From positions 63,665 to 127,664 of IMG/VR virus record IMGVR_UViG_3300028840_004475: DNA of 64,000 nt; one strand, written 5' to 3'. Position numbers and translations under genes: made by a program. Positions within the stretch are counted from its first letter, which is position 1, and each line of letters opens with the position of its first letter. Shown here one piece after another: positions 1,622 through 53,679 of the stretch. The notes beneath the pieces are model-generated. The model had not been told where the DNA came from and ran no database searches. It saw only the letters and a list, made by a program, of their open reading frames with translations. The DNA comes from a virus.

Positions 1622-3753
1622 TACGCACGCACCTTCAGGTTCGCGGCCCTATAAAGGTTGAACACTTCGACGGGTTCTAACACTCTCGGGTACCAGGCCC
1701 ATGCCAACATGTCGGCATCGAGTGGATAAAGAGGTGTGTCGTAGGCAACGCCCTGCTGTACGGCTTTAGTATTATCGCCACCGGTATATGATCCGGTTTC
1801 TGATTCCGTGGTCACTACAGCCGGGTGGTCATCGAAAAAGAGCCGGATTTTTCCATCGGCCTGCGAAAACGTGACCGTGATCATGTACAGCCTATCGGCC
1901 ACAACCAGCTCGTTTGTAAGCGGTTTGCCGACGACAAGTAGGTAGTTGGAGCTGTCGGTACTGATTTTCATGGCCACGTCGCTTGAGCTTTGCAGCTGTA
2001 ACGAGGCTGTCGGGCCCGTTGTCAGATCCCCTTTCGAAATCAACGTTTGCAGAGTGCTGACGTCGTTGAACTGCACCCAGCTCACCCATGAAAAGTCCTG
2101 ATCGACACTGAAGTCGGCGTGATGGGAGATGGTGATGTAGTTTGACGTGCTGCCGTCGTGTGCTCGTCCCTTGTCCGAGATCGCAACGTTGACCAGGTCC
2201 ACGGTACCTGTCACCGCACCGTCATGATTGCCGACGCTGTCCTTGACCACCGACGCCGTTTCTCCGGTCTCGTTGTAGTTGTAGACGGCAACCGGATTGC
2301 CGAGCGTGGCCGTGGTCAACAATCCGGCAGCCGGGTTTTTGAAAGCCGTCCACAGCGACCACTGCTCCCAGCACGGTATGGGTTCGTCGGCGAGAAGAAA
2401 ATCGGCAACCGCACCGTCGAAGAATTCGGCCGATGATCTCGCCGCACGACCAAGAGTTACAGGCGTATCTGTTTGGTCGTAGTCCACCACCAGGGGAGTA
2501 GAATTCACGTCCCGCGCATCTGCCAAATGACCGTTTACGAATAGGCTGACTTTGTAGTCATTGCACGTAGCCATGATCAAAAATGGACCATGCTCCAACT
2601 CACCGGCAGCCGTGCCACCGCCGAGTAGATCGCATTCGCAGACAAGTTCCTGGTCCGTGTCCTCGACCACGACCCAATAGAGCGTGTTGTTCTCGATGTA
2701 GAGCTTGTAACCTTCGTTGGGGGAGTCGTCGTAGCGACTGACCAAGACCTGGTCGGTTGCACCAATGTCGTCGTCGTCAACAATCCACCATCCAATGACT
2801 GTAGGTCGCTGGATGTTTGCGCCCGTCGTCCCGTAGGAGACGTAGCTGCTGGAACCGTTGAACTCGCGCATGTAGGAGCCCGGAATATTTGATGGGGCCG
2901 CACGCGTGGTCATGGAGGTTGCCGACGGCGAACGCGAGGTTCTGTCGGGAGCGACATTTGTAATCGCGGTCCCATCCCCATCCATCCGCGATAGTATCAG
3001 CGCACCTCGGCCCGGAACCGCCTGCCTGTGTTGGTACTCATCCAGCTCCTTTGCGCGATCGGCCAGCTCCTGGACCTCGGCGGCGTCAAGAGGCTCGTCC
3101 CAGACCTCAAGCATCTCCAGCGCGCCGTAGGTCATGGCGTCGGTTGACGACCCGTCGCTGAAAATGTAGAAACTACCGCCCGAACCTAGCAGAGTGGCTG
3201 GTCCAGTAGACGTGTTGCCGGCAGAAACCCCGTCAATAAACCAGGTATAGTACGTAGTGGACCTACGCAGAACAAAGTAGTGCCACTCAAATCGATCAGT
3301 ATCAATCCAATCTGAGTCAATGACTGTAGTGGTGGTCGATCCGTTCCAGTATGCAAATCTAAGTTTGTATCGATTTGTCTCGCTGATTTTTTGTATTTTG
3401 TAGTGCCGCGCGGAAGACGTACTGGGATGCCACATCGCCATCACGTCTTCCGTAGCCGGTGCGCCATCTGTCATCGTTACGCGTAGATAAAAGCCGTAGG
3501 AAAAACTTTCGGTCGTAAAGCCCTGTAGAGAGCCACTACAACTCAACCAGACGCTCGCTCCATTTTTCGGACGCATGCCCTGGACCAGGGCACCAGGGCA
3601 GGCTCTGAGCATGGTTCCGGAACCAGTAGCCGGAGTCCCTTCATCCTGAGCGTCGGTAATGGTTTCGCGTGCGTAGTCGAACGTGCTGTCGCCGCCGCTA
3701 CGCCAAGTGCCATCATCAAGAGGCCAACGAAGTATTGGGGTTGGGATCGTCAT
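1621..3753 (-). CDS. LamG-repeat tail fibre or adhesin protein
   Basis: This 710-residue protein appears to hold three concanavalin A/LamG-like jelly-roll units, around residues 1-230, 245-460 and 475-705. Each has the usual pattern of a 'FNGSSSYV' or 'DGSTSNYI' strand, a 'VNGHLAD' or 'IDGVSAG' strand and a closing 'FDGAVADFLLAD'-type strand. It is expected to be a surface protein of the tail tip that contacts host glycans. Its start overlaps the tape measure stop by four bases. The next gene downstream has the same architecture, so the two probably arose by duplication. Exact function and receptor cannot be read from the sequence. Confidence 0.75.
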   Translation of the reverse strand: MTIPTPILRWPLDDGTWRSGGDSTFDYARETITDAQDEGTPATGSGTMLRACPGALVQGMRPKNGASVWLSCSGSLQGFTTESFSYGFYLRVTMTDGAPATEDVMAMWHPSTSSARHYKIQKISETNRYKLRFAYWNGSTTTTVIDSDWIDTDRFEWHYFVLRRSTTYYTWFIDGVSAGNTSTGPATLLGSGGSFYIFSDGSSTDAMTYGALEMLEVWDEPLDAAEVQELADRAKELDEYQHRQAVPGRGALILSRMDGDGTAITNVAPDRTSRSPSATSMTTRAAPSNIPGSYMREFNGSSSYVSYGTTGANIQRPTVIGWWIVDDDDIGATDQVLVSRYDDSPNEGYKLYIENNTLYWVVVEDTDQELVCECDLLGGGTAAGELEHGPFLIMATCNDYKVSLFVNGHLADARDVNSTPLVVDYDQTDTPVTLGRAARSSAEFFDGAVADFLLADEPIPCWEQWSLWTAFKNPAAGLLTTATLGNPVAVYNYNETGETASVVKDSVGNHDGAVTGTVDLVNVAISDKGRAHDGSTSNYITISHHADFSVDQDFSWVSWVQFNDVSTLQTLISKGDLTTGPTASLQLQSSSDVAMKISTDSSNYLLVVGKPLTNELVVADRLYMITVTFSQADGKIRLFFDDHPAVVTTESETGSYTGGDNTKAVQQGVAYDTPLYPLDADMLAWAWYPRVLEPVEVFNLYRAANLKVRA

Positions 3754-6700
3754 TTGCGTCTTATACCTGGGATATCCCCGTTCTTACCTTTTTTGGTTAT
3801 CTCGTTGTAGAAGTCACCGTCTTTGTCTCTCAGCTTCGTGACGATGTTCTCTTCCACTACCTCGGCAACGTCTTCACCATTGAAGCTACAGTTTTCGAAC
3901 TTCACTTCAATGTCAAAGTTCTCTTCGTTGGTTATGTTCTGATTGCCGACTTGCGTCACACCAGAAGAACCATAGTTGCCACCAGCCTCACCTTGCGGTG
4001 CGCCGAACAGATTGGCTCCTGAGTTCAGAGCGGCTATACCTGCCGGTCCGCCAGCTGCTGCAACGCCTTGCGCAGTCAGAACACCCTCGCCGTGCTGCAG
4101 TACGGCGATGCCTTCGTTGGCTCGCAGGTTCTGTATGCGACTCAGGTCATCGCTCTTCCCAAAGATGCCGCCATCGTGGAGGACGCCGCCGAATCCCAGA
4201 AGGCCGCTACCCTGACCACCGATGTTGGCAACGGTCGGAACATTGCCACCAGCTGCGTCTCCAGCTGCTTGGTTGACATTCTGAGCAGTCTCGACCGCGG
4301 CCTCACCGAAGCTGGACGTGGCTTCTGATACTTGTTCCAAGCCTGGGATGCTGTTCAGGAAGTCAGAGATGAGCTGGAACACGGCGGACAGAGCCGTGAC
4401 GAGTCCGGTCTGGAGAGTTGCGGCCAGCTCGTTCACGAAGCCAGTGACGGTTTCGATGACGGACCACAGGGCCTCGAGGGCTGGAATGAGGCTACCGCCC
4501 CACAGAGCGTGTTCGATCGCCTTGAGTACGATTTCCAAGTACCTCAATGGCAGAAGGAACTTTTCAACCGCATGCGTTGCAGTACTGAGAGCATCCTCGA
4601 TTATGCGGGCGCCCTCATGTATTTCTTGGCTGGCAAGATCCAACCATCTTGTCCACACCAACATGGCATCATTGATCACACCAAGGAACAGAGCCGCTTG
4701 TCCGATGATGTAGTTCACCGCTTCAAATATAACCACAAGTAAGAGTAGAGGTGCGAGCAACAATAGAATCACGCCGATCAGAGGAAGCAACCCGATAGTG
4801 ATCAGAATCTCTATGACCGGTGTAAGAGCCTCTAGTACTGGCAACATCAGGAGCAAAACGTCTGCAACGATTTGCAGGACTGGGACAAGAGCTTTCGCGA
4901 TAACGTCTATCACGCCTCCGAACACTCTGAAGAACGTAGACGCGAGCTTGGAAAACGACTTCACCACTAAGTTGATGATGGTAACCAGAATAGTGATGAT
5001 TCTGACGAACGGCTTCAACACTGCTTCGATGAGGACTGTGAAGAACGGTATTAGCTGCACCAGTATATTTATTATTGAGGTGAATACCGATATCAACGAA
5101 ACAGCAACCGTAGCAACGCCGCCGATAACGGTTATGGCAGCGCTGAGGATTTCAAAGACTACCCCTACAACTTCACTCAAGCTTCCGAAGATGGCGCTAG
5201 CCAGCACACTGACGAGTGGTGTCAGTTGTTTTATGGCGTTGACGAAAACACCCAGCACATCTTGTGCTGAACCACTGAACATGGACAAGACATCAACTAG
5301 CTCCGATATGAGGTCGAAGATGCCACCTTGCACGAGCGCGATGAACTCGGCAAACGGACCAGAGAACGCGTTCAGGAGACCACCGACCGCAGTAGCAACT
5401 TGACCCAACACTGCAACCATCGGCGTGAAAAGCGTCAGCAACTGGACGAAGGTATCGAACAGTGGCAACACGCTGTTCAACATCGGTATGAAAGCTACTG
5501 TCACGACCTCATCGAAGACGGTTATGAGAGAGCCTGATATTGACGCCATGCTGGTCATTAGGCCAACGACTACCGGCAGCACGCTGGAAATCGATTCCAG
5601 GGCACCGAACAGGACGCCGAACAAGTTCTCGATCCCTGGCACTTCAAGGTCGCCTCCGGCGAAGCCGCCGATGAAGTTCTTGAAGCTGTCCATGATGGCC
5701 GTACCGATTTCCTGCAGTACGGCTGGATCTGCCAGGGTTGAGGCCACGATGCTGATGATCTCGAAGCCGGCAGTAGCCAGCTCCGGGGCTGCCGCCAGGA
5801 TGGCCCCTACGAGGGCCGTGACGACGCCTGGAGCGGCTTCGGCGAATGCTGTGGCGAGCGGGATACCCACGTTGTTGAAGACGCTCAGAAGGGCGTCCAG
5901 GAGGCTGCTCACGATCGGCCCGATCTGGTCGATGAGGCCTGTCTGGAGGAGCGCCTGGAGGGTAGCCCCTATGGACTCGCCGATATCGTCAAAAAGTGCC
6001 GGTAACGTAGCTGCTGCTGCGACGATGAACTTGGCGAATTGCTCGACGAAGACCGGCCCCAGCGTGATGAGGGCATCTCCGATCGCTGGTACCGCCTCCT
6101 CGAATGCTCTGATGAAATCATCAACAATTCCAGGTAGTTCCTGTACCAGGAGAGCGGTCACGGTCTCGAGGTTGGAGGCGAAATTGTCGATGAAGCGCTG
6201 GATGGCAACCGGCAGCTCTTCCTGGATCGCAGTAGCCAGGGCCTCGATCTCATCCTGGCCCATCAGACCCAGCTGCACGATGACCGGGATGATGCTCAGT
6301 GCGGCCTGAATGATGGTGTTGACCACGGTGTTGAAGGCCTCGAAGATGGCCCCGGCGATTGGCACCAGGCTCTTCAGAGCCTCACCAACGACACCACCGA
6401 TGATGGCACCAGCGGCCACACCCACGACTGCACCGGCCGGTCCGCCGGCCACTCCACCTGCAGCTCCAGCGCCGAATGCACCAGCGGCTGCGCCGCCAAC
6501 GGCACCCCCACCGCCGACGAGGCCTCCGATGAGCTGGCCTGCAGCCCCACCGAGCTGTCCGAACAAGTCGAAGAAATTCAGAGCGAGCCCCTGCATGGAC
6601 TGCCCGACTTCACTCGTGAACTCGAAGAACTTATTCGTCAAGTCGCCCAGGACGTCAGTGAAACGCCCGAAGAAATCTTGGATGAAATCGCCGAGAACCT

Positions 6701-9700
6701 TGTCCATTTCTTCGGCGACGTTCTCTGTGCCTTCTGCAAGGCTGGCGTTCGTGTCAGCGTTGAGATCTTCCAGACGGTTGAAGTAGTCGAAGTAGGAGAT
6801 CTCATTTCTCTTGAGCTGCTCTACCAGGTCTCCTCTGCTCTTCAGATACGAATCGACTATCTTGTCTACGGCCTCATCGTTCTTCGAGACTATCTCACCA
6901 AGAGAAGTCAAGAAGTCGCCAACGAAGAAATCGAAGGCTGCTGGGATCGCAGATATGAAGGTCTCAGAGATGATGTCGCTGATCTTTTGGATCGCCCTAA
7001 CTAACCTGGCGCCGAACGCATTCAGGAGGTCCGAGGCAAACTTGTTCGTAGTAGAATTTGCCTGGCTCACGTGACGCTTGAAAGCGTTCATAGCCGCGCT
7101 CACATCACTGAGTGCGCTCTGTCCAGTGAGGCCAAACTTCTTCTGCAGTTCGATGGCCTTCTTCTGGTTTCTCTCTGCAGTCTCTTGCGCCTTCGCTCGC
7201 TCTTCTGAAGCTTTCGCTACTATGCTCTGTCCCTTGGACGTCTCTGCATTGAGCTGCTTCACGGAATCTGAAGTGGCTTCCGTGTTCTTGTCGGCCTCTA
7301 CCATAACGCTGGCAAAGTCTGCGCCGGTATCTGCTACGTCTACGAATGTATCAACCGTTTCAGGCTTGATTTCGATTTCAGCACTAGCTGGCCGCACATC
7401 GAGTATCTTGGTACCGATCTCGATGAGCTTCTCAAGGTTCCTGATTACACCGCTACGCAGTTCGAAGATGAGATCGTTTCTGAAGATGTCGATGGCTCTA
7501 ATCAAGTCGACTGCAGAACCAGAAGCGGCACCTCCGAATTGGTACCTGGCAACACCGCCAGAGCGATAGCCAACAGGTCCGCCGTGCTTGAAGCCACGTA
7601 CATTGGCTCTCACGTCGTCTGTCGCGTTGATGAAGTCGAAGAAGCCAAGTTCTCCGCGGTCGCGCTTCCTGTTCAACGAAGCCAGTTCTTGGATGAACTC
7701 TGGCTGCAAGAACTGATTGAAGAAGCCAGTGCCCAGCGCACCAACAACACCTCGAGGGATGACGAACTCACCGGGCTCGAGAAGCGCTGGGATGATGTCG
7801 CCAAGGCCTGACCCTGGGACTGTACCGCCAGCCTGGAAACCAGCAGCAGCGCCGGTTCCTCCAAGACCAACAAGTGCAGTTGATTCGATCTTGCTTATTT
7901 TGTCTATGAAAGCTGCAACAGAATCTTCATCTGCTTCTATCTCGACCTTTGTAGGAGACAGATTAGCCAGATCAGAACGAAGTTTTTCGTAGCCTTCCTC
8001 GTATGAGAACGTGATTCGGATGGTATCTTGCTGCAGAATTTCTTTAGATTCTTCAGCAATCTCTATTTTAGAAAGTTCTTTGAATGTCGCAGCAACATCC
8101 TCAAGTCTTTCAATTGACAGGCCGAGTAACTCTTCCCTTCTACCTGGTCCGATGTCTTCTTTCGGAATGGCTGCTACAATTTCTTCTTTTCTCTCTTTTT
8201 CAAATCCCTTTGCAATTCCTTCCAACAAATCAGTACTGAATTTCTCATATTGCTCACTAGTGGGACCACCTGCGGCAACGATTCTATCAACAAGAGCTTC
8301 TCTTTTCGATTCGTCTGCTTTTGTATGCGCAACTAGTTCTTCCATCGCTGTATTAAACTTAATAAGCTCATCGATTGACAGCTTAGAAAGTTCTTGTCGC
8401 TTTTCATCTGCTAAATCAACTTTGGATGCTATGGAAGCTAGTAGAGTATCTCTCTTTTTGTCCTCTTCAAATTGTTCTTTGGTGCGCGGATCTTGAGTCT
8501 CAATATAAGAACTTTCCTTCGCGAAGAATTCCAGCTGTTCAAATGCTTTAGCGACCTCGCTATTTTTTGTTATCAAGTCATCAAGACGTGCTTTGTCTTC
8601 TTGACTAAGTTTGAAATCTGGAGGTATTTCATTGCCACTCCAGACACGTAGTAATTCAGCCATTGCTTGCTCAATAAGACCAAGCTTTTCTACGTTAAGA
8701 TAGGTACCATTTTTCAAATCATCAAGAAGCGACGGTACCAACGACTCTCTCAATATGGCTTCACTAGTACCTGAAATTGCCAATCCACCAGTCTGGTAGC
8801 CAACAGGACCACCGTGCTTGTACCCAAGAATACCCTTGATGGCTTGTGCACGATGAATGGCGTCAGGGTTCCTGAAGTTCTCAAAGAACGAGACGCCGAA
8901 TGCTTCAACGGCAGAGCGCGGTATGACGAACTCGCCTGGCTCGAGAAGCGCTGGAATGATGTCGCCCTCGCCAACGCCAGGAACCATACCACCTGTCTGG
9001 TACTTCTTGATGACGGCAGGAACGATGCCGAGACCCTCAACCACTACTCTGATCTCAGTACCGTCAAGACCGTCCAGCTTGTTGGCGATGTCACGCAGCT
9101 CAGATGCTACGTCGCGCATTGGGTCTATGACCTCAAGCAGCGATTCGGACATACGCTCAATCTGGTCGTTGGTAGCAAGCGTGACCTTTTCAAGGTCAGC
9201 CATCTTCTCAACGGGTATGGCGGCTGCAGCTGTTTTCAAAGCAGTAGCGTAGTCGGTTTCTAGACCAACTATCCGCGACAACTTGTTCACGCTGTCTGTC
9301 AACTGATTGGCAAATTCGTCAGTGAACTGACCCTCAGCTAGAGCCCTACTGAACTCGTTGGTCTGTCGATTCAGTGAATTGATGATCTCCTGTACTTTGC
9401 TGAGCCGTTCGACACTTCTTGTGATCTCGTCTTTCGATGCACCGAAGTTCTCTTTGATGCCTTCTGCGATGACCTTGAGAGCTGCCAGTCGCCCGGACAC
9501 AACGCCCGGGTCAAGCGTCTGCTCGATCGGGTCAAGCTGCTCGACATTGTCTGCCATCTGCTTGTACAGCGTGTTGGCAAGTCCAAGATTTCCGGTGTCG
9601 ATTGCTGTAGAGATCAACTCCAGAGCATTGTCGAATCTAGCCGTCTTGATGTCGTTCTGAAGTTCGATCAAAGCCTTCTGCTGGTCGTTGTACTCCTTCA

Positions 9701-12700
9701 GCAAGCGAAGCGCATCGCCGAACGCACCACCTATGTTGTCGACATCTACTTCGCCTCTGCGGAGTTGAGCGAACAACTCTTTGGCGACACCTTGCGGACC
9801 AATGCGAGAGATCTCTGTCCAGGTCAGCTTCAGCTCATCGGAGAAGTAGAGCAGCGAACTGAACGGTCCAGTGTCGAACTGTTGTGTGACGAAACCAGAC
9901 AGTATGTCGTTCACCTCGCTAGCGTTTGTAGCGATGGCCTGGTACTGACGCTCGTAGATATCGAGTAGCTGCTGGTTGAGCTTGACTTCTTTTGTCAAGT
10001 TGTCTTTGAGATTCTTCTTCTCAACTTCGAAGATTGCAACTGCTAAACCATACTGGTCCTTTGCAGCAGCGGTCAGACGCAATTGCTGTTCGGTTGACAG
10101 CGCTTCTGAGTCCCTGCGCTGCGAATCTATCTCACGCTGAAGCGCCAGGAATCTCGTCAGGCCGGCGATGAACTTGAGTTGGACTCCAAGACGTCTGTTC
10201 TCTATTCCTTGTGTCGTCTTCTCAATGCCAAGGATCTTCAGCGCCTTGTCAGTGATGCCGGAGAAAGCAGCGGCTTCTGTAGCTATGGTGCGCAGGATAC
10301 CGAACCTGACATTCGACTCCTGGATGCTGAGTTCAAGCAGTTCTCTACGGTCATCGAGAAGTTCTGCTTCTGCGGCTGCTGCTTTGGCACGAACAGTGAA
10401 ACTTTGTGAATCAAGCCTGACGCCTTTTTCTTTGTCTTTTGCAATTCTCTGTTCGCGACTGCCGATTTCTTCGATGAGCCTTCTCTGCTTTTGCAGGTTT
10501 GCCGTGAGTTTGCTGTTGCCAGACTGAAGCAATTCAGTCTTGTCTATTGCGTCTCTGATGGCATTCGAACGACTGCGTGATGCCGCGATCAACTTCTCAG
10601 TAGCTTTGAGTATCGCTTCGTTGTTCTGAGCTTCCCTCAGAGAGAGGATTTCGATGTCTTCCAGGACAACGTGTAGTTCTGCAGCTCTACGCTTTCTTTC
10701 TTCAAAAGCGTTCACTGTGTCAACGGCGACACCAAGCTGAGCCCTTGCAGTGTTGAGACTCTTGTCACCAAGCTGACTCGAACGACGATTTATTCCCAGC
10801 GTCTGAATGGTTGCCTTGATGAGTTCTTGCTCTGCATTCAGATGGTCAATGCGTTGTTTGGCACCAGCCTTCAGTACGTTGTTTACCTGTTCCTGCTGGG
10901 TAACTGCTACCGCACGAGCCTTTTCGCTTGTGTCGCTAGAAGCGCTGATGTTCTTGAGGCTTTCCTTTTGGATATCAAGTTCATCTTTGATCAAATTCTT
11001 GCGTTGACTGGTGAGACTGATCTCTCTCTTGACGTTGCCCAAGCGACTGAGGCTAGCAACAGACGCAATTCTCTCGGACTTGTTCAGGGCACCAAGGAAT
11101 TTCGTGATGTCAAACAAAGCCTGCACACTTGCCAACTGTGTGAACAGCAATGTGTGGTTGAGTTCGTTGATATTACCGAACAGTTGCTCTACGCGTCCAA
11201 GCGCTGCCGCGTTTTCTCTCGTGATCTCATTGAGCCTTACCTGGTCAGTGATACCATTCGCACGTAGCTTCAGCTGTTGTCTGAGACGCTCAATGATCGT
11301 ACTTTGCAGCGTCGCGAGACCTGCAACGGCCTGGGCTCTTTGTTCTTCAGTGGCAGCAGTCTTTTCGACCAAACCAAGATCGTATTGCCTAATGAACGAC
11401 ACCCTGCGCGACAGTTCTATGGCTTCCTTCTGGTTGATGAATGATGAGCGCAAAATGTTGCGGTTCTTGTTGACGGCGGTCTGGATGTTGCTGACCAATG
11501 TGTTGGCGAAGATTGTGCCGGCTCTCTCGACTTCTTGCGGATTAACGATGAGGCTTGGCAAATCTTCTGCGAAAGTAGCTGTAGCTCCTGTGACTTTGTC
11601 GAGTGTGTCTTCAAAGTCGCCTTCGAGTCTGGCTATAGAATCACGAAGTGCTTGTAACTCAGTGTCATCGATGATGACGTCGAATTTGAATAGACTGAAA
11701 ATCTGCAGACTCTTAGCGGCGTCTGCCAACGATTGCATCGTGACTGTAATACCTGAAATCTCTTGCCCGAACCGTAGAGCCTTTACCTTCTCCATGGCAT
11801 TTACGGTTGTACTGAATGCATCTGCAGTTGTAAGAGCCTCTTCTTTGACAAGACCCAATGATGTGAATAACGATCTGGCTTGATTTGAAGCTTCAGAGAA
11901 TTTGATTGCAAGTCGTGGCGACTCTTTTATGAGCAGCTTCCACTGTTTAAATACTTCAGAAGATTCTTCTTTTGCATCTTTTAGAGCTGCTCTGGCTTCA
12001 TAACTTGCGGATCTAAGCGCCCTCAATTGCTGTACGTCTGTAGTAGCGCTGATCGATTTGTTGAATCTAGCAACCTCAGGACCAAATTTACGTATGTCCT
12101 TGTTTGCTTGCTGAATTGTAGACAAGACATCGTCAAGAGATTTCTTGAACTCGCTTTCTCTCTCTTGTTCGTCTTGTTTCTGAAGTTGTTCTAAGATACG
12201 AAGCTGCACACCAACTTTGTCATTAAAGACAGCCAGATCACCACCGGCTGCTATTGCTGCCTCAGCTAGATCTCCATACTTGCCAGCAACGTTTCCGATT
12301 GCGATAGCAGCTTCGTCAGTACTCAACGCACCGTTGTCAACTTGTTGTTGAAGAAGTTCAAGTTCTCTGCGTGTGTTTTTGATTGAGTCGATCTGTTTCT
12401 GCCGCTCGTTTATCTCAGTAGTCATCTCCTTGATGGCTTCGCGACTCGCTTCAACACTTTCAGCAACTGTTTTGCTGAAGATTAAGTACGCTGCAGTAGC
12501 TGCAGCAATAGCAGCAATAATAAGCCCTATGACCAGAAGATAAGGGTTCGTCAACCACAGAGCGTGCATCTGCAACTGCACTGCTACCAAAGCCAAACGC
12601 AAGCCGCCGAGTGCACCAGTCAACGTCAACGTGGTGCCGGTCATAGCAGTAATGCCGAGCGCTGCACCAGCAGTAGTGCCGGCGAGTAGACCGGTCACCA

Positions 12701-14618
12701 AGTTCACCGCCAGCATGACGACTTTCAAAGCCAAAAGTGCTGTCGCCAGTTTCAGCACGATGGCAAGAAAATCACCAATTGCATTATCCCTGAGTGCCTC
12801 CCGCATGGCTTGCATGATCTTGATGATGGCGCCAAGAAAGAGAGCAATCGGCTGAAGGGCTTCGCGAGCAACCTCTAGGAGGATGTTCTTGAAAATTGAG
12901 AACTGACGTGACAGCTCATCGACGCGCGTGTCTGCCATTGCTTCGGCAGCACCCTGCGACTCCTCTTGCAACTTCCTGATGGTCTCGTTCAAGTCGCCCG
13001 TCTTTTGCGTGAGGATCAAGAATGAGTTCGCACCACGCAGACCCAAGCGCTCGAACACTGTACCGACCTGGTTAGCCGTGAGCTGACCATTGCCGAGACG
13101 TATGTTGATTTGTCGGATCAGATCCAAGAAGTCGAGCGGCTTCTCAGGGTCGAAAGCGATACCAAAAGCACGCTGGAACTCGGCCTGCTGCGAAGTAATG
13201 CGAGCGAAGATGGAACGCATTGAACGGCCGGCTTCACCAGCACGGATGAAGTTGTTCTGCAGCGTAGCCAGGATACCGGTCGTCTCTTCCAGAGACAGGC
13301 CCAGCTGTTTAGCGACAGGGAGCGCGAACTTGAGACCTTGGTTCAGTTCGTTCAGCTCGACCTGATTGTTGCGATAGGTGGCCGCGAGGACGTCATTGAT
13401 CCTTGCGAATGCTTCCAGCTTTGTGCCGGTGCCAGCGACACTGCCGCCGAGGAGCCTGTACGTGGCTGCTACGGTCTTGGTCGTAGACGTGACGTCAGCA
13501 TCGGTTGCAATGATCAAGTTCAGCGTTGACTCGAGAGCGGCCAGTGACTCCTCTGCTTGGAGACCGGCGCTACCGAACTGGAACAGGATCTCACTGACGT
13601 CTTTGACGCTCTGGCCAGTCTGCGACGAGAAGTCTACGATGGCTTCTCGGAGACTATTGAAACGCTCTTCGAGGAGGATGACTTCGGAACGCGAGACCGC
13701 GAAGGCCTTAGCAGTCCGGTCCTGCAACTCGAGGAGTGATTCGAAGGCTCGCCTGATGTTGGTGATTGCACCGAAGACCAGGATAGACGAAGCAAAGAAA
13801 CGCAACTGCTGCTTGACGATGTTGTCGAAGCCAGCCGATAGAGATTTCGTGGCCACGGCGGCACGCTGCTGCTCTTGGGCCTGTTTCTTCTGGGCTGCGG
13901 CGTTCTTCTCAATAGCAGCCGCAGCAGTCCTTGCGCTCTGAGCTTCCTTGTCCAGACCGGCCGCTGCCTGATTGAACAGGCCGGCAGTCTTGGTGACGTT
14001 GACCCCAAGCTTCTCGTGCTCTTGGCTCAGCCGCTCAAGCTCTTTGACCGCAGCCACACCCTTGGCGCGGGCGCGTTCCAGCTCCGTAGCGTGTGCACGG
14101 AGCGCTTTTGCAGACGCTACGTCGGCTGACTCCGACCCCCTCGACGCCCGCGAACGAGCCAGCTCCGCTTGTACTAGCTCTCGTGCCTCATTGATCTTGA
14201 GGCGCATGGCATCGGCCGTCCTCTTGACGCGGCGTGCCTCGTTCTCTTCTTCAGTCGCTGCCCGGCCAGCTCCTACACGGCTCTTGATGGCGTTGACCTC
14301 ATCGATCAACTGCTTCATGAGCTGCATCTGCGCGTTCGTATCGCCTACTGTGCGACGGATCATCTCGAACTGTTTGACGGCCGGAGTAACGTCGATGTTC
14401 TTGACGTTGGCGATTGCGGTGAGGGTACCTTCAACGGCCTTCGTCAGGTTGTCAAAAGCTGCTTTCGACGCGTTGACGTTTTGTAGGCGATTGATCGATG
14501 AAGCAAAGCGACCAGCCGCATTCGCGAACTGGCGCATCTCGCCAACCAACTTCTGGAAGGTCGCGCCACCGACGCGCCTGATCTCGACATTGAACCGAAT
14601 CGTCCGCTCAGCAGGCAT
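3750..14618 (-). CDS. Giant tail tape measure protein
   Basis: This 3622-residue protein is the longest gene in the window. The N-terminal third is coiled coil followed by the conserved tape-measure core (about residues 330-560, with 'ILFQFGSAGLQAEESLAALE' and 'GRSMRSIFARITSQ'). Hydrophobic stretches follow at about 610-720, then long coiled coils to about 1850. Two copies of the tape-measure motif 'GDIIPALLEPGEFVIPR' lie near residues 1880 and 2270. Residues from about 2500 to 3450 are strongly hydrophobic and alpha-helical, and the C-terminus is Gly-rich. The protein sets tail length during assembly and is ejected with the DNA. At about 0.15 nm per residue, known from other siphophages, it predicts a tail near 540 nm. 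The tail chaperone genes lie directly upstream. Confidence 0.97.
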   Translation of the reverse strand: MPAERTIRFNVEIRRVGGATFQKLVGEMRQFANAAGRFASSINRLQNVNASKAAFDNLTKAVEGTLTAIANVKNIDVTPAVKQFEMIRRTVGDTNAQMQLMKQLIDEVNAIKSRVGAGRAATEEENEARRVKRTADAMRLKINEARELVQAELARSRASRGSESADVASAKALRAHATELERARAKGVAAVKELERLSQEHEKLGVNVTKTAGLFNQAAAGLDKEAQSARTAAAAIEKNAAAQKKQAQEQQRAAVATKSLSAGFDNIVKQQLRFFASSILVFGAITNIRRAFESLLELQDRTAKAFAVSRSEVILLEERFNSLREAIVDFSSQTGQSVKDVSEILFQFGSAGLQAEESLAALESTLNLIIATDADVTSTTKTVAATYRLLGGSVAGTGTKLEAFARINDVLAATYRNNQVELNELNQGLKFALPVAKQLGLSLEETTGILATLQNNFIRAGEAGRSMRSIFARITSQQAEFQRAFGIAFDPEKPLDFLDLIRQINIRLGNGQLTANQVGTVFERLGLRGANSFLILTQKTGDLNETIRKLQEESQGAAEAMADTRVDELSRQFSIFKNILLEVAREALQPIALFLGAIIKIMQAMREALRDNAIGDFLAIVLKLATALLALKVVMLAVNLVTGLLAGTTAGAALGITAMTGTTLTLTGALGGLRLALVAVQLQMHALWLTNPYLLVIGLIIAAIAAATAAYLIFSKTVAESVEASREAIKEMTTEINERQKQIDSIKNTRRELELLQQQVDNGALSTDEAAIAIGNVAGKYGDLAEAAIAAGGDLAVFNDKVGVQLRILEQLQKQDEQERESEFKKSLDDVLSTIQQANKDIRKFGPEVARFNKSISATTDVQQLRALRSASYEARAALKDAKEESSEVFKQWKLLIKESPRLAIKFSEASNQARSLFTSLGLVKEEALTTADAFSTTVNAMEKVKALRFGQEISGITVTMQSLADAAKSLQIFSLFKFDVIIDDTELQALRDSIARLEGDFEDTLDKVTGATATFAEDLPSLIVNPQEVERAGTIFANTLVSNIQTAVNKNRNILRSSFINQKEAIELSRRVSFIRQYDLGLVEKTAATEEQRAQAVAGLATLQSTIIERLRQQLKLRANGITDQVRLNEITRENAAALGRVEQLFGNINELNHTLLFTQLASVQALFDITKFLGALNKSERIASVASLSRLGNVKREISLTSQRKNLIKDELDIQKESLKNISASSDTSEKARAVAVTQQEQVNNVLKAGAKQRIDHLNAEQELIKATIQTLGINRRSSQLGDKSLNTARAQLGVAVDTVNAFEERKRRAAELHVVLEDIEILSLREAQNNEAILKATEKLIAASRSRSNAIRDAIDKTELLQSGNSKLTANLQKQRRLIEEIGSREQRIAKDKEKGVRLDSQSFTVRAKAAAAEAELLDDRRELLELSIQESNVRFGILRTIATEAAAFSGITDKALKILGIEKTTQGIENRRLGVQLKFIAGLTRFLALQREIDSQRRDSEALSTEQQLRLTAAAKDQYGLAVAIFEVEKKNLKDNLTKEVKLNQQLLDIYERQYQAIATNASEVNDILSGFVTQQFDTGPFSSLLYFSDELKLTWTEISRIGPQGVAKELFAQLRRGEVDVDNIGGAFGDALRLLKEYNDQQKALIELQNDIKTARFDNALELISTAIDTGNLGLANTLYKQMADNVEQLDPIEQTLDPGVVSGRLAALKVIAEGIKENFGASKDEITRSVERLSKVQEIINSLNRQTNEFSRALAEGQFTDEFANQLTDSVNKLSRIVGLETDYATALKTAAAAIPVEKMADLEKVTLATNDQIERMSESLLEVIDPMRDVASELRDIANKLDGLDGTEIRVVVEGLGIVPAVIKKYQTGGMVPGVGEGDIIPALLEPGEFVIPRSAVEAFGVSFFENFRNPDAIHRAQAIKGILGYKHGGPVGYQTGGLAISGTSEAILRESLVPSLLDDLKNGTYLNVEKLGLIEQAMAELLRVWSGNEIPPDFKLSQEDKARLDDLITKNSEVAKAFEQLEFFAKESSYIETQDPRTKEQFEEDKKRDTLLASIASKVDLADEKRQELSKLSIDELIKFNTAMEELVAHTKADESKREALVDRIVAAGGPTSEQYEKFSTDLLEGIAKGFEKERKEEIVAAIPKEDIGPGRREELLGLSIERLEDVAATFKELSKIEIAEESKEILQQDTIRITFSYEEGYEKLRSDLANLSPTKVEIEADEDSVAAFIDKISKIESTALVGLGGTGAAAGFQAGGTVPGSGLGDIIPALLEPGEFVIPRGVVGALGTGFFNQFLQPEFIQELASLNRKRDRGELGFFDFINATDDVRANVRGFKHGGPVGYRSGGVARYQFGGAASGSAVDLIRAIDIFRNDLIFELRSGVIRNLEKLIEIGTKILDVRPASAEIEIKPETVDTFVDVADTGADFASVMVEADKNTEATSDSVKQLNAETSKGQSIVAKASEERAKAQETAERNQKKAIELQKKFGLTGQSALSDVSAAMNAFKRHVSQANSTTNKFASDLLNAFGARLVRAIQKISDIISETFISAIPAAFDFFVGDFLTSLGEIVSKNDEAVDKIVDSYLKSRGDLVEQLKRNEISYFDYFNRLEDLNADTNASLAEGTENVAEEMDKVLGDFIQDFFGRFTDVLGDLTNKFFEFTSEVGQSMQGLALNFFDLFGQLGGAAGQLIGGLVGGGGAVGGAAAGAFGAGAAGGVAGGPAGAVVGVAAGAIIGGVVGEALKSLVPIAGAIFEAFNTVVNTIIQAALSIIPVIVQLGLMGQDEIEALATAIQEELPVAIQRFIDNFASNLETVTALLVQELPGIVDDFIRAFEEAVPAIGDALITLGPVFVEQFAKFIVAAAATLPALFDDIGESIGATLQALLQTGLIDQIGPIVSSLLDALLSVFNNVGIPLATAFAEAAPGVVTALVGAILAAAPELATAGFEIISIVASTLADPAVLQEIGTAIMDSFKNFIGGFAGGDLEVPGIENLFGVLFGALESISSVLPVVVGLMTSMASISGSLITVFDEVVTVAFIPMLNSVLPLFDTFVQLLTLFTPMVAVLGQVATAVGGLLNAFSGPFAEFIALVQGGIFDLISELVDVLSMFSGSAQDVLGVFVNAIKQLTPLVSVLASAIFGSLSEVVGVVFEILSAAITVIGGVATVAVSLISVFTSIINILVQLIPFFTVLIEAVLKPFVRIITILVTIINLVVKSFSKLASTFFRVFGGVIDVIAKALVPVLQIVADVLLLMLPVLEALTPVIEILITIGLLPLIGVILLLLAPLLLLVVIFEAVNYIIGQAALFLGVINDAMLVWTRWLDLASQEIHEGARIIEDALSTATHAVEKFLLPLRYLEIVLKAIEHALWGGSLIPALEALWSVIETVTGFVNELAATLQTGLVTALSAVFQLISDFLNSIPGLEQVSEATSSFGEAAVETAQNVNQAAGDAAGGNVPTVANIGGQGSGLLGFGGVLHDGGIFGKSDDLSRIQNLRANEGIAVLQHGEGVLTAQGVAAAGGPAGIAALNSGANLFGAPQGEAGGNYGSSGVTQVGNQNITNEENFDIEVKFENCSFNGEDVAEVVEENIVTKLRDKDGDFYNEITKKGKNGDIPGIRRK

Positions 14619-14624: not shown

Positions 14625-15212
14625 TCACCTTCTGCGGCGGGGCGTTCGTTTTGGTGCGCGGGCGGGCTTGGAACCGGTTTTTATATTGCTGTTTTTATCT
14701 GTTTTCTGCTTGGCCCGTTCGTGCTCCTCCTTTTCGATCGAACGTTGTTCCCCTACAACGGCTTGCCTCAACTGGAAGTAGAACTTCGTGTGGTTGAGGA
14801 GCCCTCCGTCAATCAATGGTGCGCTCATGTCTTCTGACCACTGGATCAGGTCGACGAGCGTTACGAGTCCGCGTTCACTCAAGAATAGCGCAGTCGGACA
14901 GCTATAGAAAGAGTGCTTCCCGTCAACGAGGATCGGCTTTTCTTTCTCTTCCTCAACCGGCTCTTCTTTCTTAGGAGCTACCTTCTTATTTTTACTAAAC
15001 TGAATCTTGTATTTATTTGTACTGGATTTCTTGACCGACTCTTCGACATCGGTCAGCTCCTCAGGAGGCAAGAAGGGACACCTCCGCTCCAGCTGGAGCT
15101 TCGGCTGCTCCATGCAGTGCTCACACGACCAGCTCTTCTGGCGGTGCTCTGGGTCGTTACCGGACGCGAGGAAGTGGCGGAACCTTACAATGTCCCGCGC
15201 CCTCGTTATTCC
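14625..15212 (-). CDS. Tail assembly chaperone, -1 frameshift extension (T-like)
   Basis: This reading frame is open from the end of the upstream chaperone gene to a stop at 14625, about 195 codons. It has no well-placed start of its own; its first ATG is at 15113. The region upstream of that ATG reads as sensible protein (a Cys pair in 'SWSCEHC', 'RHFLASGNDPEH'), which implies entry by -1 frameshifting at the G-run 15211-15215. The C-terminal half is highly charged and ends in an Arg-rich tail. In lambda-like phages the G-T fusion chaperone recruits the tape measure protein, and the position just before the tape measure gene fits exactly. The fusion would have about 321 residues. Confidence 0.8.
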   Translation of the reverse strand, partial: GITRARDIVRFRHFLASGNDPEHRQKSWSCEHCMEQPKLQLERRCPFLPPEELTDVEESVKKSSTNKYKIQFSKNKKVAPKKEEPVEEEKEKPILVDGKHSFYSCPTALFLSERGLVTLVDLIQWSEDMSAPLIDGGLLNHTKFYFQLRQAVVGEQRSIEKEEHERAKQKTDKNSNIKTGSKPARAPKRTPRRRR

Positions 15213-15589
15213 CCCTCTTCGGCCTCAGACTCGCCCTTGATGTGCTGGGCGATCTCCTTGCGGACGGCAGGCGGGATCTTGTTGATGTTGGACATCTTGT
15301 CCTCATCCTTTTCGCCTGCGTTGAACTCGACGGGCTCGCTGTCCTCGCCCACAAAGTTCTCCCACCCCTTGAGGCATCGCTTGAGCACCTCGTTCTGCTG
15401 CGTGCCGCTCTTGATCGTCTCCTTGCGGCCGGTGCCCATGCCCTTGACCTGGTAGACGTCGTCGGAGAGCTTCGCCTCGAAGTAGGCGTCGATGTAGGTG
15501 ACCATGAACTTGGTCTGCTCCTCAGGCGGCAGCCCTTGGTCGCACTTTGGCACGAATGTGTGAGGTGTCTTGGTGTCGATTGCCTTCAT
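15206..15589 (-). CDS. Tail assembly chaperone (G-like), 127 residues
   Basis: I take the start at 15589 because AGGAG lies seven bases upstream, although the frame stays open to 15853. That extra 88-codon stretch would encode a hydrophobic segment and has no good ribosome binding site. The product is acidic, helical and of normal size for a G-type tail chaperone. It ends at 15206 in GAG GGG GAA TAA. A TGA in the -1 frame a few codons earlier restricts any productive slip to the last five codons, which contain the run of five G. The gene lies between major tail protein and tape measure, the standard place. Family membership is inferred from position, size and the frameshift layout. Confidence 0.78.
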   Translation of the reverse strand: MKAIDTKTPHTFVPKCDQGLPPEEQTKFMVTYIDAYFEAKLSDDVYQVKGMGTGRKETIKSGTQQNEVLKRCLKGWENFVGEDSEPVEFNAGEKDEDKMSNINKIPPAVRKEIAQHIKGESEAEEGE

Positions 15590-15875
15590 GATGATCTCCT
15601 GTTCTGTTTTGTTAGATGCGTACCGGAGGCCCTCCACCAGTACGTTGCGGCCGATTATATGAGCGTGTTTGCGGAGTTTCAACCCCAGCTTGTATATGTA
15701 TCCGCCCCCATGGCCCTGTAGGCGGCGGACAAGCCAAAAACAGCCTACCCACAACCTATCGTATACCCACATCCACGCCAAACTTGGCAAGAAAAATACG
15801 AAGGCCCCCAGGAGCTTGATGCCTGAGACTTCAATTCGGTCACGCTGGTGCATGTAGAAGGAGCAGCCCGACCCC

Positions 15876-15914: not shown

Positions 15915-17855
15915 CTAGATGGTGGCAACCGTGTTCACGAGGATCACGACCACCTCGTTCATCGAATTCTCCTGATCGACAAGAGCCGTGAAGTTCATGT
16001 CGTGAGTGATCTGGTCCGGGCCGCCGATCTGAGGCGTGGTGCCCGTGAACTCGATGTTGGGGAAGAGGACGTGCTTCTGACGGTAGACGTCGTTGCCGGC
16101 GCCGTTGATCACCTCACCTTCGTCCACCGAACGGAACTCGAGGTAGGCCGAGGTCGCGTTGATGTACTTGTGGTACAGGATCTCATCGTCGAACTCGACG
16201 TTCAGGACGCCTTCGACAGTCCTCAACTGCTCGGGGAGGCCGGCGCGGAACCGGTCACCCAACTGGAACTTGTCCGCGAACAGGTTGTTGTTCAGGGTCC
16301 AGCTGCCAGACAGCACTTCCTGGGCCACGCCATCGAGGTAGACGGCTGCCTGGAAGGAGCTGAGCGGGTCGGTGGTCGGCGGGTCAGCTGGGTCGTCCCA
16401 GTGGCCCTGCACCGCGACGGGCTCACCGGCCGCATGGTCGGAGTCGCTCGCCCAGTTGGTGATGTTCTTGAGCTTGGCCGTACCAGCGGTGATCGAGACC
16501 TCAGTGCCGTCGTAGGCGATCTCGTTCTCACTGCCGACCTGCACTTCACCGACCTTGTTGAAGCCGATGATGCCGGGGCCGAGATACAGACGCTGGCCGA
16601 TGGGGCCTGTACCTGCCGTGTAGGCCGAGACACGTGCGCGGACCCAATAGGCAGCCTGCGCATTGACCGTGGTCGATGCCCAATCGCTCGGAAGGTCGAA
16701 ACTGTTGACGTAGGTGCCAGCAGCCTCGTCCAGGTCAACAGTCTCCTGGTTGTTGAACAGGAGAGTCGACCAGGCCGTACCATCCCAGTACTCCCAGGTG
16801 ATCGTCCAGTTGGCCGTCACCGCGGCAGTGCTGATGATGATCTCAATGGCCGGGAACACATCGTCTGCACCGAAGTAGTAGGCGTCATCGACCGCCGGGG
16901 TAACCGGAAGCAGTGTGACGTCGTCTGCGGTGTTGTTGTTGGCGGCGGTGGTCTCGTCTGTGAAGACGGCACCGTCGTCCGCGAACGCGTAGCCGATGTT
17001 CTGGCTCGCGCTGTAGTAGTCCAGGGTGTAGTTGGTGAGGTCCAACTCGGTCGTGGCCGACGTGGCCGCGCTGAGAAGGTCCGCACCGCTGTACTCCCCG
17101 CGACCGATCCAGCTGAAGGTCGCCTGGAGGATCTCCTGCGCGGTGTAGGTCTCCTCGAGGGTGTTGCACTTGCATCCGCCGTAGATGAAGTACGCCAGGT
17201 CGCGGCCGACCTCGAAGGTCATGCCGGTCGGCAGCGTGGGGCCGGACTCGATGTAGTGCGAGTAGACGCCGGTCCAGTCAGTCGCGTTCGACTGGATGAT
17301 CCAGGCGCCCTGGTTGATGGAGACTCCGGGGTCGCCACCGGTGAGGGTGAAGGTGGTTTCGCCAGCGGCGAAGGCTGCCGTGTAGGCCAGACCCGTCACT
17401 GCCTGCAGGTCATCGCTGGAGTCCTTGTAGACGACAGCGATGGTGTAGTTGGCGCCGCCGGTCTCGAAGACGCCCGTGACGTCCCCTGTGACCACCAGCT
17501 CGTGGGGACCAGCGCCTCCTGTCGTGTAGGCCGTGTTCACCTGAGCCCGGATACCACCGTCGGCCGCCGTGAGCGTCACATAGTCACCCAGGGCGTGCTT
17601 GTACCACGTCCCGTAGCCCTCTGTGTTTTGCTCGATGGCGACATCGCCGGTGATGTTCGAGGTGCCGGGCACGCGCTTGGACGTACCGCGGCTTGGGTTC
17701 AGGGCCTCGGACAGCAGGTTGCCGATCTCGTTGTTGAACGACTCCGTCTTGAAGTCGACACGAAAATTCGGGGGGATTGGCTGACCCCAGTCGCGTTCCT
17801 CGCCATAGGCGAAGACACCGCGGGCGCCAATCGCAATCTGTCCCGTGGTACCCAT
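15915..17855 (-). CDS. Major tail tube protein
   Basis: A 646-residue protein starting at ATG 17855, behind an AGAGGAGA ribosome binding site. The N-terminus ('GARGVFAYGEERDWGQP', then 'VPGTSNITGDVAIEQNTEGY') and 'GTWYKHALGD' are typical of siphovirus tail-tube proteins that polymerise as hexamer rings. The final 150 residues ('WTLNNNLFADKF', 'YLEFRSVDEGEVI') repeat features of the tube domain. A middle insert of about 200 residues looks like an Ig- or discoidin-type decoration domain. That makes it about twice the usual length, and the insert probably projects from the tail surface. The chaperone and tape measure genes follow directly. Confidence 0.85.
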   Translation of the reverse strand: MGTTGQIAIGARGVFAYGEERDWGQPIPPNFRVDFKTESFNNEIGNLLSEALNPSRGTSKRVPGTSNITGDVAIEQNTEGYGTWYKHALGDYVTLTAADGGIRAQVNTAYTTGGAGPHELVVTGDVTGVFETGGANYTIAVVYKDSSDDLQAVTGLAYTAAFAAGETTFTLTGGDPGVSINQGAWIIQSNATDWTGVYSHYIESGPTLPTGMTFEVGRDLAYFIYGGCKCNTLEETYTAQEILQATFSWIGRGEYSGADLLSAATSATTELDLTNYTLDYYSASQNIGYAFADDGAVFTDETTAANNNTADDVTLLPVTPAVDDAYYFGADDVFPAIEIIISTAAVTANWTITWEYWDGTAWSTLLFNNQETVDLDEAAGTYVNSFDLPSDWASTTVNAQAAYWVRARVSAYTAGTGPIGQRLYLGPGIIGFNKVGEVQVGSENEIAYDGTEVSITAGTAKLKNITNWASDSDHAAGEPVAVQGHWDDPADPPTTDPLSSFQAAVYLDGVAQEVLSGSWTLNNNLFADKFQLGDRFRAGLPEQLRTVEGVLNVEFDDEILYHKYINATSAYLEFRSVDEGEVINGAGNDVYRQKHVLFPNIEFTGTTPQIGGPDQITHDMNFTALVDQENSMNEVVVILVNTVATI

Positions 17856-17882: not shown

Positions 17883-18395
17883 TTAGTCGCCCCGTTGCTC
17901 TTGGATCAGAACGGGGACGTTGTAACGAACACGTCCCCCTGCGTAGACACCGTTCAATCGAGTGCGGTTAAGCACCTCACTCGACACGATCCTGGCGCCT
18001 TTCGAACTGAGCCCGTTCACGAACGAATTGCGCCGAAGAATCCTGCCAAGCTCCCAGAGAGCGCTTCTTATCTCTTTTTCTCGTAGCTCTTCATTGATTT
18101 GCTGGTGATAGTAGTAGATCTCAATGCCTATTTGCAACTCGTAGGTAACATTTTTCTTGCCTATCGTGTGGATCTCCTCTTCGTGGTCTACGAAGTCCAC
18201 ACAGATGCACGGAGTCTCAGGAACTATAAGCAAATCAGCAGGATAGACCTCGTGTACCCTCTTGATCCAGGTCAGATACTGACCAGGGTCGGTCACCTGC
18301 ATGCGCTTGATGATCTCGACGATGTTGGCGACAGCGTCATCGAAGTAGTCGCCCGTCTTGATTAGGTATTGTGTCGGTCTGTCCTGGATTGGCAT
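17883..18395 (-). CDS. Tail terminator-like neck protein
   Basis: A 170-residue protein just upstream of the tail tube gene, in the slot normally held by the tail terminator. The pattern fits the terminator/minor-tail fold: an N-terminal helix ('YFDDAVANIVEIIKRM'), a conserved-looking 'PCICVDFVDHEEEIHTIGKK' and alternating strands ('YELQIGIEIYYYHQ'). It would cap the tail tube and join it to the head. Assignment rests on position and predicted secondary structure, not on a clear family signature. Confidence 0.6.
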   Translation of the reverse strand: MPIQDRPTQYLIKTGDYFDDAVANIVEIIKRMQVTDPGQYLTWIKRVHEVYPADLLIVPETPCICVDFVDHEEEIHTIGKKNVTYELQIGIEIYYYHQQINEELREKEIRSALWELGRILRRNSFVNGLSSKGARIVSSEVLNRTRLNGVYAGGRVRYNVPVLIQEQRGD

Positions 18396-18398
18396 CGT

Positions 18399-19031
18399 CT
18401 ACTTGCCTTTGCTCTGCACCTTGGCAGCCGCTAGCACAAACAGCTCGTCAGCGATGTTCTCGAGCTTACCGAAAAGTGCCTTTTGTTGCCAAACGAATAT
18501 CCTCATGACGCCTATCGAACCGCCACTGCGCTCCATGAGCTTCTCATCGACGATGTTCGGATAGAGGTCGCGAAGCCCAGAAACGTCTGCATTGATGGAC
18601 AGGTCGGCATAGTCTTTGCCGCGTACGATGGTGTCGCTCTGGCCGCCATGGATGGCATCGAACAGGACCGATTCCATGGTCCCGGTTGCATACCAGTTGC
18701 TGTCGTTCACCACGCTGAACATCTGCTCTGAACCAGTGAGTCGAAACATCCATTCTCTACTGAAGCCGTTGGCCACGAGGATGTGTTCCATCTCTGCTTG
18801 GTCTGTGACGCCAAGAAGCTCAGACTTGACTCGAGACCAGTGTTCAGCGACCGGCACCTTCTCGAAGAAGCCCATCATGTGCTCGAGATAATCAGCAATC
18901 AGATTTCGATTCCTGGCCCAGAACAGCTTTGACAGGTCACCAACGACGTTGTTGCCGAATACCTCCAGCGTGTCAGCCATCTGGCTGACCTTGCGTACGA
19001 ATTCATTGAAGTTGGTGTCAACTTGGTACAT
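18399..19031 (-). CDS. Neck/head-tail joining protein (putative)
   Basis: A 210-residue protein located between the connector-like gene and the terminator-like gene. The N-terminal half is helical ('FNEFVRKVSQMADTLEVFGN') and includes the long 'AHWSRVKSELLG' stretch; the C-terminal half contains 'IGVMRIFVWQQKALFGKLEN'. Similar small proteins (HK97 gp10-like) occupy this spot in other siphophages. Its start overlaps the previous stop by one base, so it is translationally coupled. Function is inferred from position only. Confidence 0.5.
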   Translation of the reverse strand: MYQVDTNFNEFVRKVSQMADTLEVFGNNVVGDLSKLFWARNRNLIADYLEHMMGFFEKVPVAEHWSRVKSELLGVTDQAEMEHILVANGFSREWMFRLTGSEQMFSVVNDSNWYATGTMESVLFDAIHGGQSDTIVRGKDYADLSINADVSGLRDLYPNIVDEKLMERSGGSIGVMRIFVWQQKALFGKLENIADELFVLAAAKVQSKGK

Positions 19032-21048: not shown

Positions 21049-21052
21049 CGTC

Positions 21053-21304
21053 CTAGTCTCCGTTGAGTTCCTCGCGCAGCCCGCGCAAGGTCTCAACACT
21101 CTCCTCCAATTCATCGTAGATACGCTTGTCCTGCATGTCCCTGCTGCGTATCTCCTGGACAGTCTCGTAGGGGAACAGCTTGGCGAACCTCTCGTTGTGG
21201 TCGTGTCTCAGCCACTCTGTTTCGCCGTTGCCATCACTCTCCCTGCGAAGACGGTCGATCTTCTTCCTACTTCTGAGGCCAAAAATGCTGGAGAGCAGAC
21301 CCAT
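21053..21304 (-). CDS. Small charged protein, unknown
   Basis: An 83-residue protein with a basic start ('FGLRSRKKIDRLRRESDG') and an acidic helical end ('LEESVETLRGLREELNGD'). It is separated from its neighbours by a few bases, within a block of small membrane-linked genes upstream of the patatin. No family recognised. Confidence 0.6.
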   Translation of the reverse strand: MGLLSSIFGLRSRKKIDRLRRESDGNGETEWLRHDHNERFAKLFPYETVQEIRSRDMQDKRIYDELEESVETLRGLREELNGD

Positions 21305-52839: not shown

Positions 52840-52923
52840 GGATCGGTAGCTGAGCTGGTTTAGCAGCGGGCTGTTAACCCGTGCCCTCGGGCTACGTGGG
52901 TTCGAGTCCCACCCGATCCGCCA
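52840..52923 (+). tRNA. tRNA-Asn(GTT) with class II variable arm
   Basis: Acceptor GGATCGG/CCGATCC, discriminator G, CCA encoded. Anticodon loop CTGTTAA. The variable region is 13 bases with a GCCC/GGGC stem, which is unusual for Asn, a class I tRNA elsewhere. The D stem has three pairs, as in Ser and Leu tRNAs. Confidence 0.88.
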
Positions 52924-52926
52924 TGT

Positions 52927-52995
52927 GGGCGCCAGGCTATGGCAGCCAAGCGGGCTCCAACCCCGCAGGACAGGGTTCGATTCCTTGGGCGCTCG
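52927..52995 (+). tRNA. tRNA-Trp(CCA) with very short D-loop
   Basis: Acceptor GGGCGCC/GGCGCTC (one G-T), anticodon stem GCGGG/CCCGC with loop CTCCAAC, T-loop TTCGATT. The D-loop has only about five bases (ATGGC). CCA is not encoded. Confidence 0.85.
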
Positions 52996-53010
52996 TAGAA
53001 AGAAAAATGT

Positions 53011-53086: not shown

Positions 53087-53089
53087 AAC

Positions 53090-53165: not shown

Positions 53166-53234
53166 TTCAAGGAAACGAACGAAAACTGAAATAAGGAGGT
53201 CGCCTCGAGCCCATGTTTCAAAAGATCAGCACAT

Positions 53235-53317: not shown

Positions 53318-53320
53318 TGT

Positions 53321-53678: not shown

Positions 53679-53679
53679 T

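What the first reader, a model, noticed from the sequence alone, without database searches (positions are those of the whole stretch)
3750..14618. 3622-residue tape measure predicts a tail of about half a micrometre
Seen: uninterrupted frame of 10.9 kb. Using about 0.15 nm per residue known from siphophages, the tail would be near 540 nm, among the longest. The doubled 'GDIIPALLEPGEFVIPR' motif suggests internal duplication.
Basis: partly seen in the sequence, partly recalled or inferred. Interest (0 to 1): 0.6.

Follow-up and report, generated by a model that had tools for sequence, protein, structure and literature searches.

The report
Giant tape-measure gene, probable half-micrometre tail
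An uncultivated virus of bacteria carries an intact, unusually long gene for the protein that sets tail length, so it probably has a flexible tail of about half a micrometre, one of a small group of very long-tailed phages that includes several relatives found here.

Summary
One uninterrupted minus-strand frame at 3750-14618 encodes 3622 residues. A second assembled contig carries it letter for letter, and homologues of similar size (3752 and 3517 aa) exist in relatives. It is a phage tail tape measure protein (PF10145, E = 8e-24; PHROG tape measure, E = 1e-41). It lies in a textbook siphophage order: tail tube gene, chaperone pair with a conserved apparent -1 frameshift site, tape measure. 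No contractile-tail gene was found.

Published calibrants (0.126-0.165 nm per residue) predict roughly 510-570 nm, with a broad interval of about 470-675 nm. The 540 nm estimate is therefore sound as a prediction, and no virion has been seen. It is not a record: Gordonia Montyvirus phages measure about 540 nm and Thermus P23-45/P74-26 over 800 nm.

The doubled motif is real, but it is not duplication of the ruler itself: it is two copies of a module of about 75-105 residues, widespread in unrelated tape measure proteins.

New here is a lineage of uncultivated phages that keeps rulers of at least 3500 residues. One contig-truncated relative has an extra ~1050-residue N-terminal segment and may reach 4600-5000 residues. 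The finding is a new member of a known kind.

The parts
3750..14618 (-). tail tape measure protein, 3622 aa
   Evidence: ORF; PF10145 E=8.2e-24; PHROG 1272 E=1.4e-41 and further tape-measure PHROGs; identical ORF in a second contig
13149..13646 (-). PhageMin_Tail (TP901-family tape measure) core, aa 325-490
   Evidence: surrounding aa 264-560 is 58-66% identical in relatives
12462..12785 (-). first hydrophobic region, two transmembrane-like segments, aa 612-719
   Evidence: hydropathy; similar position after the core in relatives
8784..9002 (-). GEFVI module copy 1, aa 1873-1945, containing GDIIPALLEPGEFVIPR at 8916-8966
7518..7838 (-). GEFVI module copy 2, aa 2261-2367, containing GDIIPALLEPGEFVIPR at 7752-7802
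4674..6455 (-). C-terminal hydrophobic region, 12 transmembrane-like segments, aa 2722-3315
   Evidence: hydropathy; also hydrophobic in L020 and L041
4014..4178 (-). conserved C-terminal segment GGIFxxSDD...EGxAxLQxGEGxLTxxGVxAxGG, aa 3481-3535
   Evidence: conserved in L020; seen twice in the L041 sequence
15206..15853 (-). tail assembly chaperone (lambda gpG-like position), 215 aa
   Evidence: homologous and in the same position in L041, L042, L020
14625..15224 (-). -1 frame extension (lambda T-like), inferred to be fused to the chaperone by frameshifting
   Evidence: -1 frame open in all four phages, extension 185-201 aa
15206..15217 (-). inferred frameshift site GAG GGG GAA TAA
   Evidence: GGGGGAA present in all four phages; in L020 the -1 frame only opens at this site
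15915..17855 (-). tail tube protein, 646 aa, with an inserted domain in the middle
   Evidence: PF18906 Phage_tube_2 E=4.7e-23, PHROG 290; 46-68% identical in relatives
17883..20221 (-). three conserved head-tail genes (170, 210, 396 aa), function unassigned
   Evidence: 170- and 210-aa genes found in L041, L042 and L020, the 396-aa gene in L041; the L042 and L020 loci begin too close to show more
31376..32632 (-). major head protein
   Evidence: PHROG 29 E=8e-30; 47% identical in the L020 genome
35130..36803 (-). portal protein
   Evidence: PHROG 113 E=2.9e-29
36791..38761 (-). terminase large subunit
   Evidence: PHROG 5909 E=1e-21; 55% identical in the L020 genome

Best explanation
This is the tape measure protein of a dsDNA phage with a long non-contractile tail (siphovirus). 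A few copies of the largely alpha-helical protein are coated by the frameshifted chaperone pair; tail tube subunits then polymerise around them, and the extended length of the protein sets a tail of roughly 510-570 nm. On infection the protein leaves the tube, and its hydrophobic segments probably help form the channel for DNA. Shown by sequence: the intact ORF, family membership, gene order, the conserved frameshift arrangement, lack of a recognisable sheath, and conservation of the large size among relatives. Inferred: helical extension, copy number, tail length, and channel formation, all from characterised siphophages.
For: PF10145 and eleven tape-measure PHROGs. Order tail tube, chaperone with -1 extension, tape measure, conserved in four phages. 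No Phage_sheath_1, sheath C-terminal or Baseplate_J family in the 147,747-base record, while controls rang. Homologues of 3752 and 3517 aa. Tail calibration from papers: TP901-1 0.145 nm per residue (PMC5099701); phiCbK 1964 aa/300 nm and Colossus 2155 aa/336 nm (PMC3556154); Tsamsa 3123 aa/440 nm (PMC3903500); Katyusha 9084 bp/500 nm (PMC4919401); Monty/Hotorobo 9984 bp/540 nm (PMC4982279); regression.
Against: No virion, proteome or host is known. Calibrants scatter from 0.126 to 0.165 nm per residue (0.176 with a lambda value whose residue count is from memory). Tsamsa's tape measure was found in two bands, 280 and 100 kDa (PMC3903500), so large rulers may be cut. The P23-45 tape measure carries an RNA polymerase (PMC10770324), which shows that not every residue need be ruler. 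The Gly/Pro-richer modules and the ~600-residue hydrophobic region may not be straight helix. Sheath absence rests on known families only.
Confidence: 0.85

Rival explanations
1. It is the tape measure protein, but a large part of it (the modules, or the C-terminal hydrophobic region) is globular, folded back or cleaved, so the tail is well below 450 nm.
For: Two bands for the Tsamsa ruler (PMC3903500). Non-ruler domain in the P23-45 ruler (PMC10770324). Gly/Pro-richer stretches at aa 1850-2400 and 2700-3100.
Against: Other giant rulers with extra domains still give 0.16-0.165 nm per residue (Gordonia phages; the Katyusha ruler includes putative lytic transglycosylase domains). No enzymatic Pfam domain in this protein.
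Confidence: 0.12
2. The tail is contractile (myovirus) with a sheath too diverged to detect; the ORF is still the ruler.
For: Some cyanophage records of 167-205 kb carry the same GEFVI module in hypothetical proteins, and the tail tube is large and unusual.
Against: Tail tube matches Phage_tube_2. No sheath or Baseplate_J family found. The gene after the tube is the chaperone in all four phages, with no sheath gene between.
Confidence: 0.04
3. The ORF is an assembly chimera or a fusion of neighbouring genes.
For: GC content at third codon positions varies along the gene from 0.30 to 0.74.
Against: Identical ORF in a second contig. Homologues from other samples align over most of their length and have similar sizes.
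Confidence: 0.02

Closest known systems
Gordonia phages Monty, Hotorobo, Chelms (Montyvirus) and Katyusha
   Same: Giant tape measure protein (3027-3349 aa), tails of 500-540 nm where measured; Chelms has a frameshifted chaperone just upstream and the same GEFVI module.
   Different: Chelms, the one compared by sequence, shows no similarity along the ruler except the module and one weak stretch; 74-77 kb genomes; putative lytic transglycosylase domains reported for the Katyusha ruler.
Thermus phages P23-45 / P74-26 (Oshimavirus)
   Same: Major head protein shows weak similarity (25%); giant ruler and extremely long tail.
   Different: The 5002-aa P23-45 ruler shows no significant similarity to this one (best E = 0.16), lacks the module, and begins with an RNA polymerase (PMC10770324).
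Bacillus phage Tsamsa
   Same: Siphovirus with a 3123-aa ruler and a 440-nm tail (PMC3903500).
   Different: Temperate phage of a Gram-positive host; no sequence comparison with this ruler was made.
IMG/VR contigs 3300022552_000002, 3300028840_005764, 3300033146_003904, 3300033143_007022
   Same: True relatives: core 58-66% identical; same gene order where seen (three of the four checked); rulers 3752, 3517, >=3227 and >=2492 aa.
   Different: Lengths differ mainly before the PhageMin_Tail core and in the C-terminal region; 3300033146 has about 1050 extra N-terminal residues.

Membership tests
Phage tail tape measure protein (TP901 / PhageMin_Tail type) | PF10145 core above the curated cut-off | tested here: met
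   85 bits against a cut-off of 33.2
Phage tail tape measure protein (TP901 / PhageMin_Tail type) | gene lies after tail tube and a frameshifted chaperone pair | tested here: met
   the frameshift itself is inferred from open frames, not shown
Phage tail tape measure protein (TP901 / PhageMin_Tail type) | hydrophobic segments within a long helix-rich chain | tested here: met
   14 transmembrane-like segments, proline-poor aa 100-1800; helicity itself not measured
Phage tail tape measure protein (TP901 / PhageMin_Tail type) | protein length sets tail length | not testable with these tools
   needs microscopy of wild type and deletions
Siphovirus (long non-contractile tail) | tail tube present, no sheath | tested here: met
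   PF18906; PF04984, PF17482 and PF04865 absent
Oshimavirus-type RNA-polymerase-fused tape measure | N-terminal RNA polymerase (DxDGD catalytic motif) in the tape measure | tested here: not met
   only a chance DKDGD at the C-terminus, not in L020 or L041; no match to the P23-45 ruler better than E = 0.16
Montyvirus (Gordonia giant-tail phages) | overall homology of the tape measure | tested here: not met
   against Chelms only the GEFVI module (39% over 79 aa) and a weak stretch (25%, E = 8e-5) match

The most novel reading that the evidence does not exclude
The window belongs to an uncultivated phage lineage that maintains rulers of at least 3500 residues across deep divergence (47% identity in the major head protein) and varies ruler length chiefly in the coiled-coil-like part before the PhageMin_Tail core. 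Its truncated member L042 would have a ruler of about 4600-5000 residues and a tail near 0.7 micrometre, rivalling Thermus phage P23-45 without an RNA polymerase domain.
Probability: 0.5. Interest if true: 0.45.

Novelty: new member of a known kind. Interest (0 to 1): 0.32.

Why it matters
Very long phage tails are known from few lineages. This adds another, found only in metagenomes, in which ruler length differs between relatives sharing the same tail tube and chaperones. That is a natural series for asking which parts of a tape measure protein actually count as ruler, and why a phage would pay for half a micrometre of tail. It also shows that the doubled motif is a widespread module of such proteins whose role is unknown.

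Tried and rejected
AlphaFold model of the module from 21 sequences: pLDDT 60, no defined fold, only short helices after an extended stretch; not interpreted. AlphaFold model of the tail tube from 4 sequences: pLDDT 35, useless, so no fold search was run. Search of the Protein Data Bank with the ruler and with the L042 N-terminal segment: no match. Virion RNA polymerase in the ruler: rejected. Homology of the C-terminal GEGVLT segment with the GEFVI module: not significant against shuffles. Completing the L042 ruler from another contig: none found. Host from genomes: one major-head-protein relative lies in a bin called Candidatus Fermentibacteria, on a 20,043-base contig of exactly the same length as a viral contig in IMG/VR; too weak to name a host.

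Full report
Observation. The frame at 3750-14618 is on the minus strand, begins with ATG, and runs 3622 codons without a stop. It lies at positions 67414-78282 of a 147,747-base virus record, computed from the window offset. The first and last 112 bases of that record agree, but they begin with a 20-base tandem repeat, so circular closure is not certain. A second contig, 52,785 bases, holds the same ORF letter for letter. The gene overlaps the next one (1621-3753) by four bases and starts six bases after the T frame ends, which is typical of tightly packed late phage genes.

Identity. PF10145 matches aa 325-490 (E = 8e-24). Eleven or more PHROG tape-measure families match, the best covering aa 82-736 (E = 1e-41). 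Upstream lie a tail tube protein (PF18906) and a chaperone ORF whose -1 frame continues for about 190 codons. The same arrangement occurs in three relatives, and GGGGGAA sits in the overlap in all four. In L020 the overlap is only 13 bases, which places the shift at that site. The heptamer is not the canonical XXXYYYZ, so the exact slip is inferred. Major head protein, head protease, portal and terminase lie further upstream in the expected order. Families for sheath and baseplate J are absent, so a siphovirus tail is the best reading.

Anatomy of the ruler. Aa 1-260 are charged, proline-poor and coiled-coil-like. Aa 264-560 are the conserved core. Aa 612-719 are hydrophobic. Aa 720-1850 are again proline-poor. 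Aa 1873-1945 and 2261-2367 are the two modules. Aa 2722-3315 hold twelve transmembrane-like segments, and the last 140 residues hold a conserved C-terminal segment.

The doubled motif. The repeat extends to about 75-105 residues (E = 3e-20), with nothing else duplicated around it. Searching phages with each copy gives 224 and 124 records. Most listed hits are annotated as tape measure proteins (Gordonia, Mycobacterium, Achromobacter, Nitrincola, Clavibacter and others), with some hypothetical proteins of cyanophages. Counts per ruler vary from one to four. Two copies also occur in much shorter rulers: Athena 1909 aa and Zirinka 2146 aa. Copy number is therefore not a simple function of length. 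The module is a shared, repeatedly gained unit of unknown role, not a sign that this ruler doubled.

Relatives. Searching viral contigs with the core gives rulers of 3752 aa (L020) and 3517 aa (L041 and L045, from two metagenomes), plus two cut by contig ends (L042, at least 3227; L044, at least 2492). The L020 genome also shares the major head protein (47%) and terminase (55%), so this is a real lineage. In L042 the part matching aa 13-637 starts only at residue 1069, so about 1050 residues are added before it. Its end aligns with a position near the first module, leaving 1400-1750 residues still to come if it resembles its relatives. That projection of 4600-5000 residues is inference.

Tail length. 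Published pairs: TP901-1 937 aa/118 nm, with a slope of 0.145 nm per residue after 127 non-ruler residues (PMC5099701); phiCbK 1964 aa/300 nm and Colossus 2155 aa/336 nm (PMC3556154); Tsamsa 3123 aa/440 nm (PMC3903500); Katyusha 3027 aa/500 nm (PMC4919401); Monty 3327 aa/540 nm (PMC4982279). For 3622 residues these give 507 nm by the TP901-1 rule, 543 nm at 0.15 nm, and 573 nm by regression with a 95% prediction interval of about +-102 nm. With lambda added (its length in residues from memory) the regression gives 567 +- 93 nm. It would equal or slightly exceed the Gordonia giants and remain well below P23-45/P74-26 (over 800 nm, PMC9022992).

Limits. No particle, host or proteome is known. 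Processing of the ruler and helical extension are untested. The absence of a sheath rests on known families. The two structure predictions were uninformative.

Verdict. A well-supported giant tape measure protein, and a reasonable but unverified prediction of a half-micrometre tail. It is unusual in size and ordinary in kind, with an added interest in the newly seen lineage.

Noticed in passing
52840-59573: 37 tRNA genes on the plus strand covering nearly all amino acids, interspersed with small ORFs.
   Followed up: no
20224-21114: Patatin-like phospholipase gene inside the head-tail gene block (PF01734 E = 1e-19), kept at the same place in relative L041 (30% identity, PF01734 E = 8e-32). A virion or entry role is possible.
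   Followed up: partly
49476-51209: Ro60-like protein with TROVE and vWA domains (PF25045 E = 2e-50, PF05731 E = 3e-41), shortly before the tRNA block in a phage rich in tRNA genes.
   Followed up: no
15915-17855: Tail tube protein is 646 aa with a middle insertion (about aa 260-440) that matches other phage contigs at 42-52% and is replaced or shorter in L020: apparently an exchangeable surface domain.
   Followed up: partly
L004:10693-14460: Class II ribonucleotide reductase of 1255 aa interrupted by a LAGLIDADG domain, probably an intein.
   Followed up: no
2894-2897: One-base difference in a run of G between the two assemblies inside the 710-aa lectin-domain gene (1621-3753), which would shift its frame.
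   Followed up: no
L031: A ruler of 3856 aa with four GEFVI-type modules in a 106.6-kb contig that shows no match to this phage's head protein or terminase.
   Followed up: partly
L020 (ruler residues about 2110-2240): Short tandem peptide repeats between the two modules (for example three copies of VDIDLEKAIAALPMGD-like units) that the window's ruler lacks.
   Followed up: no
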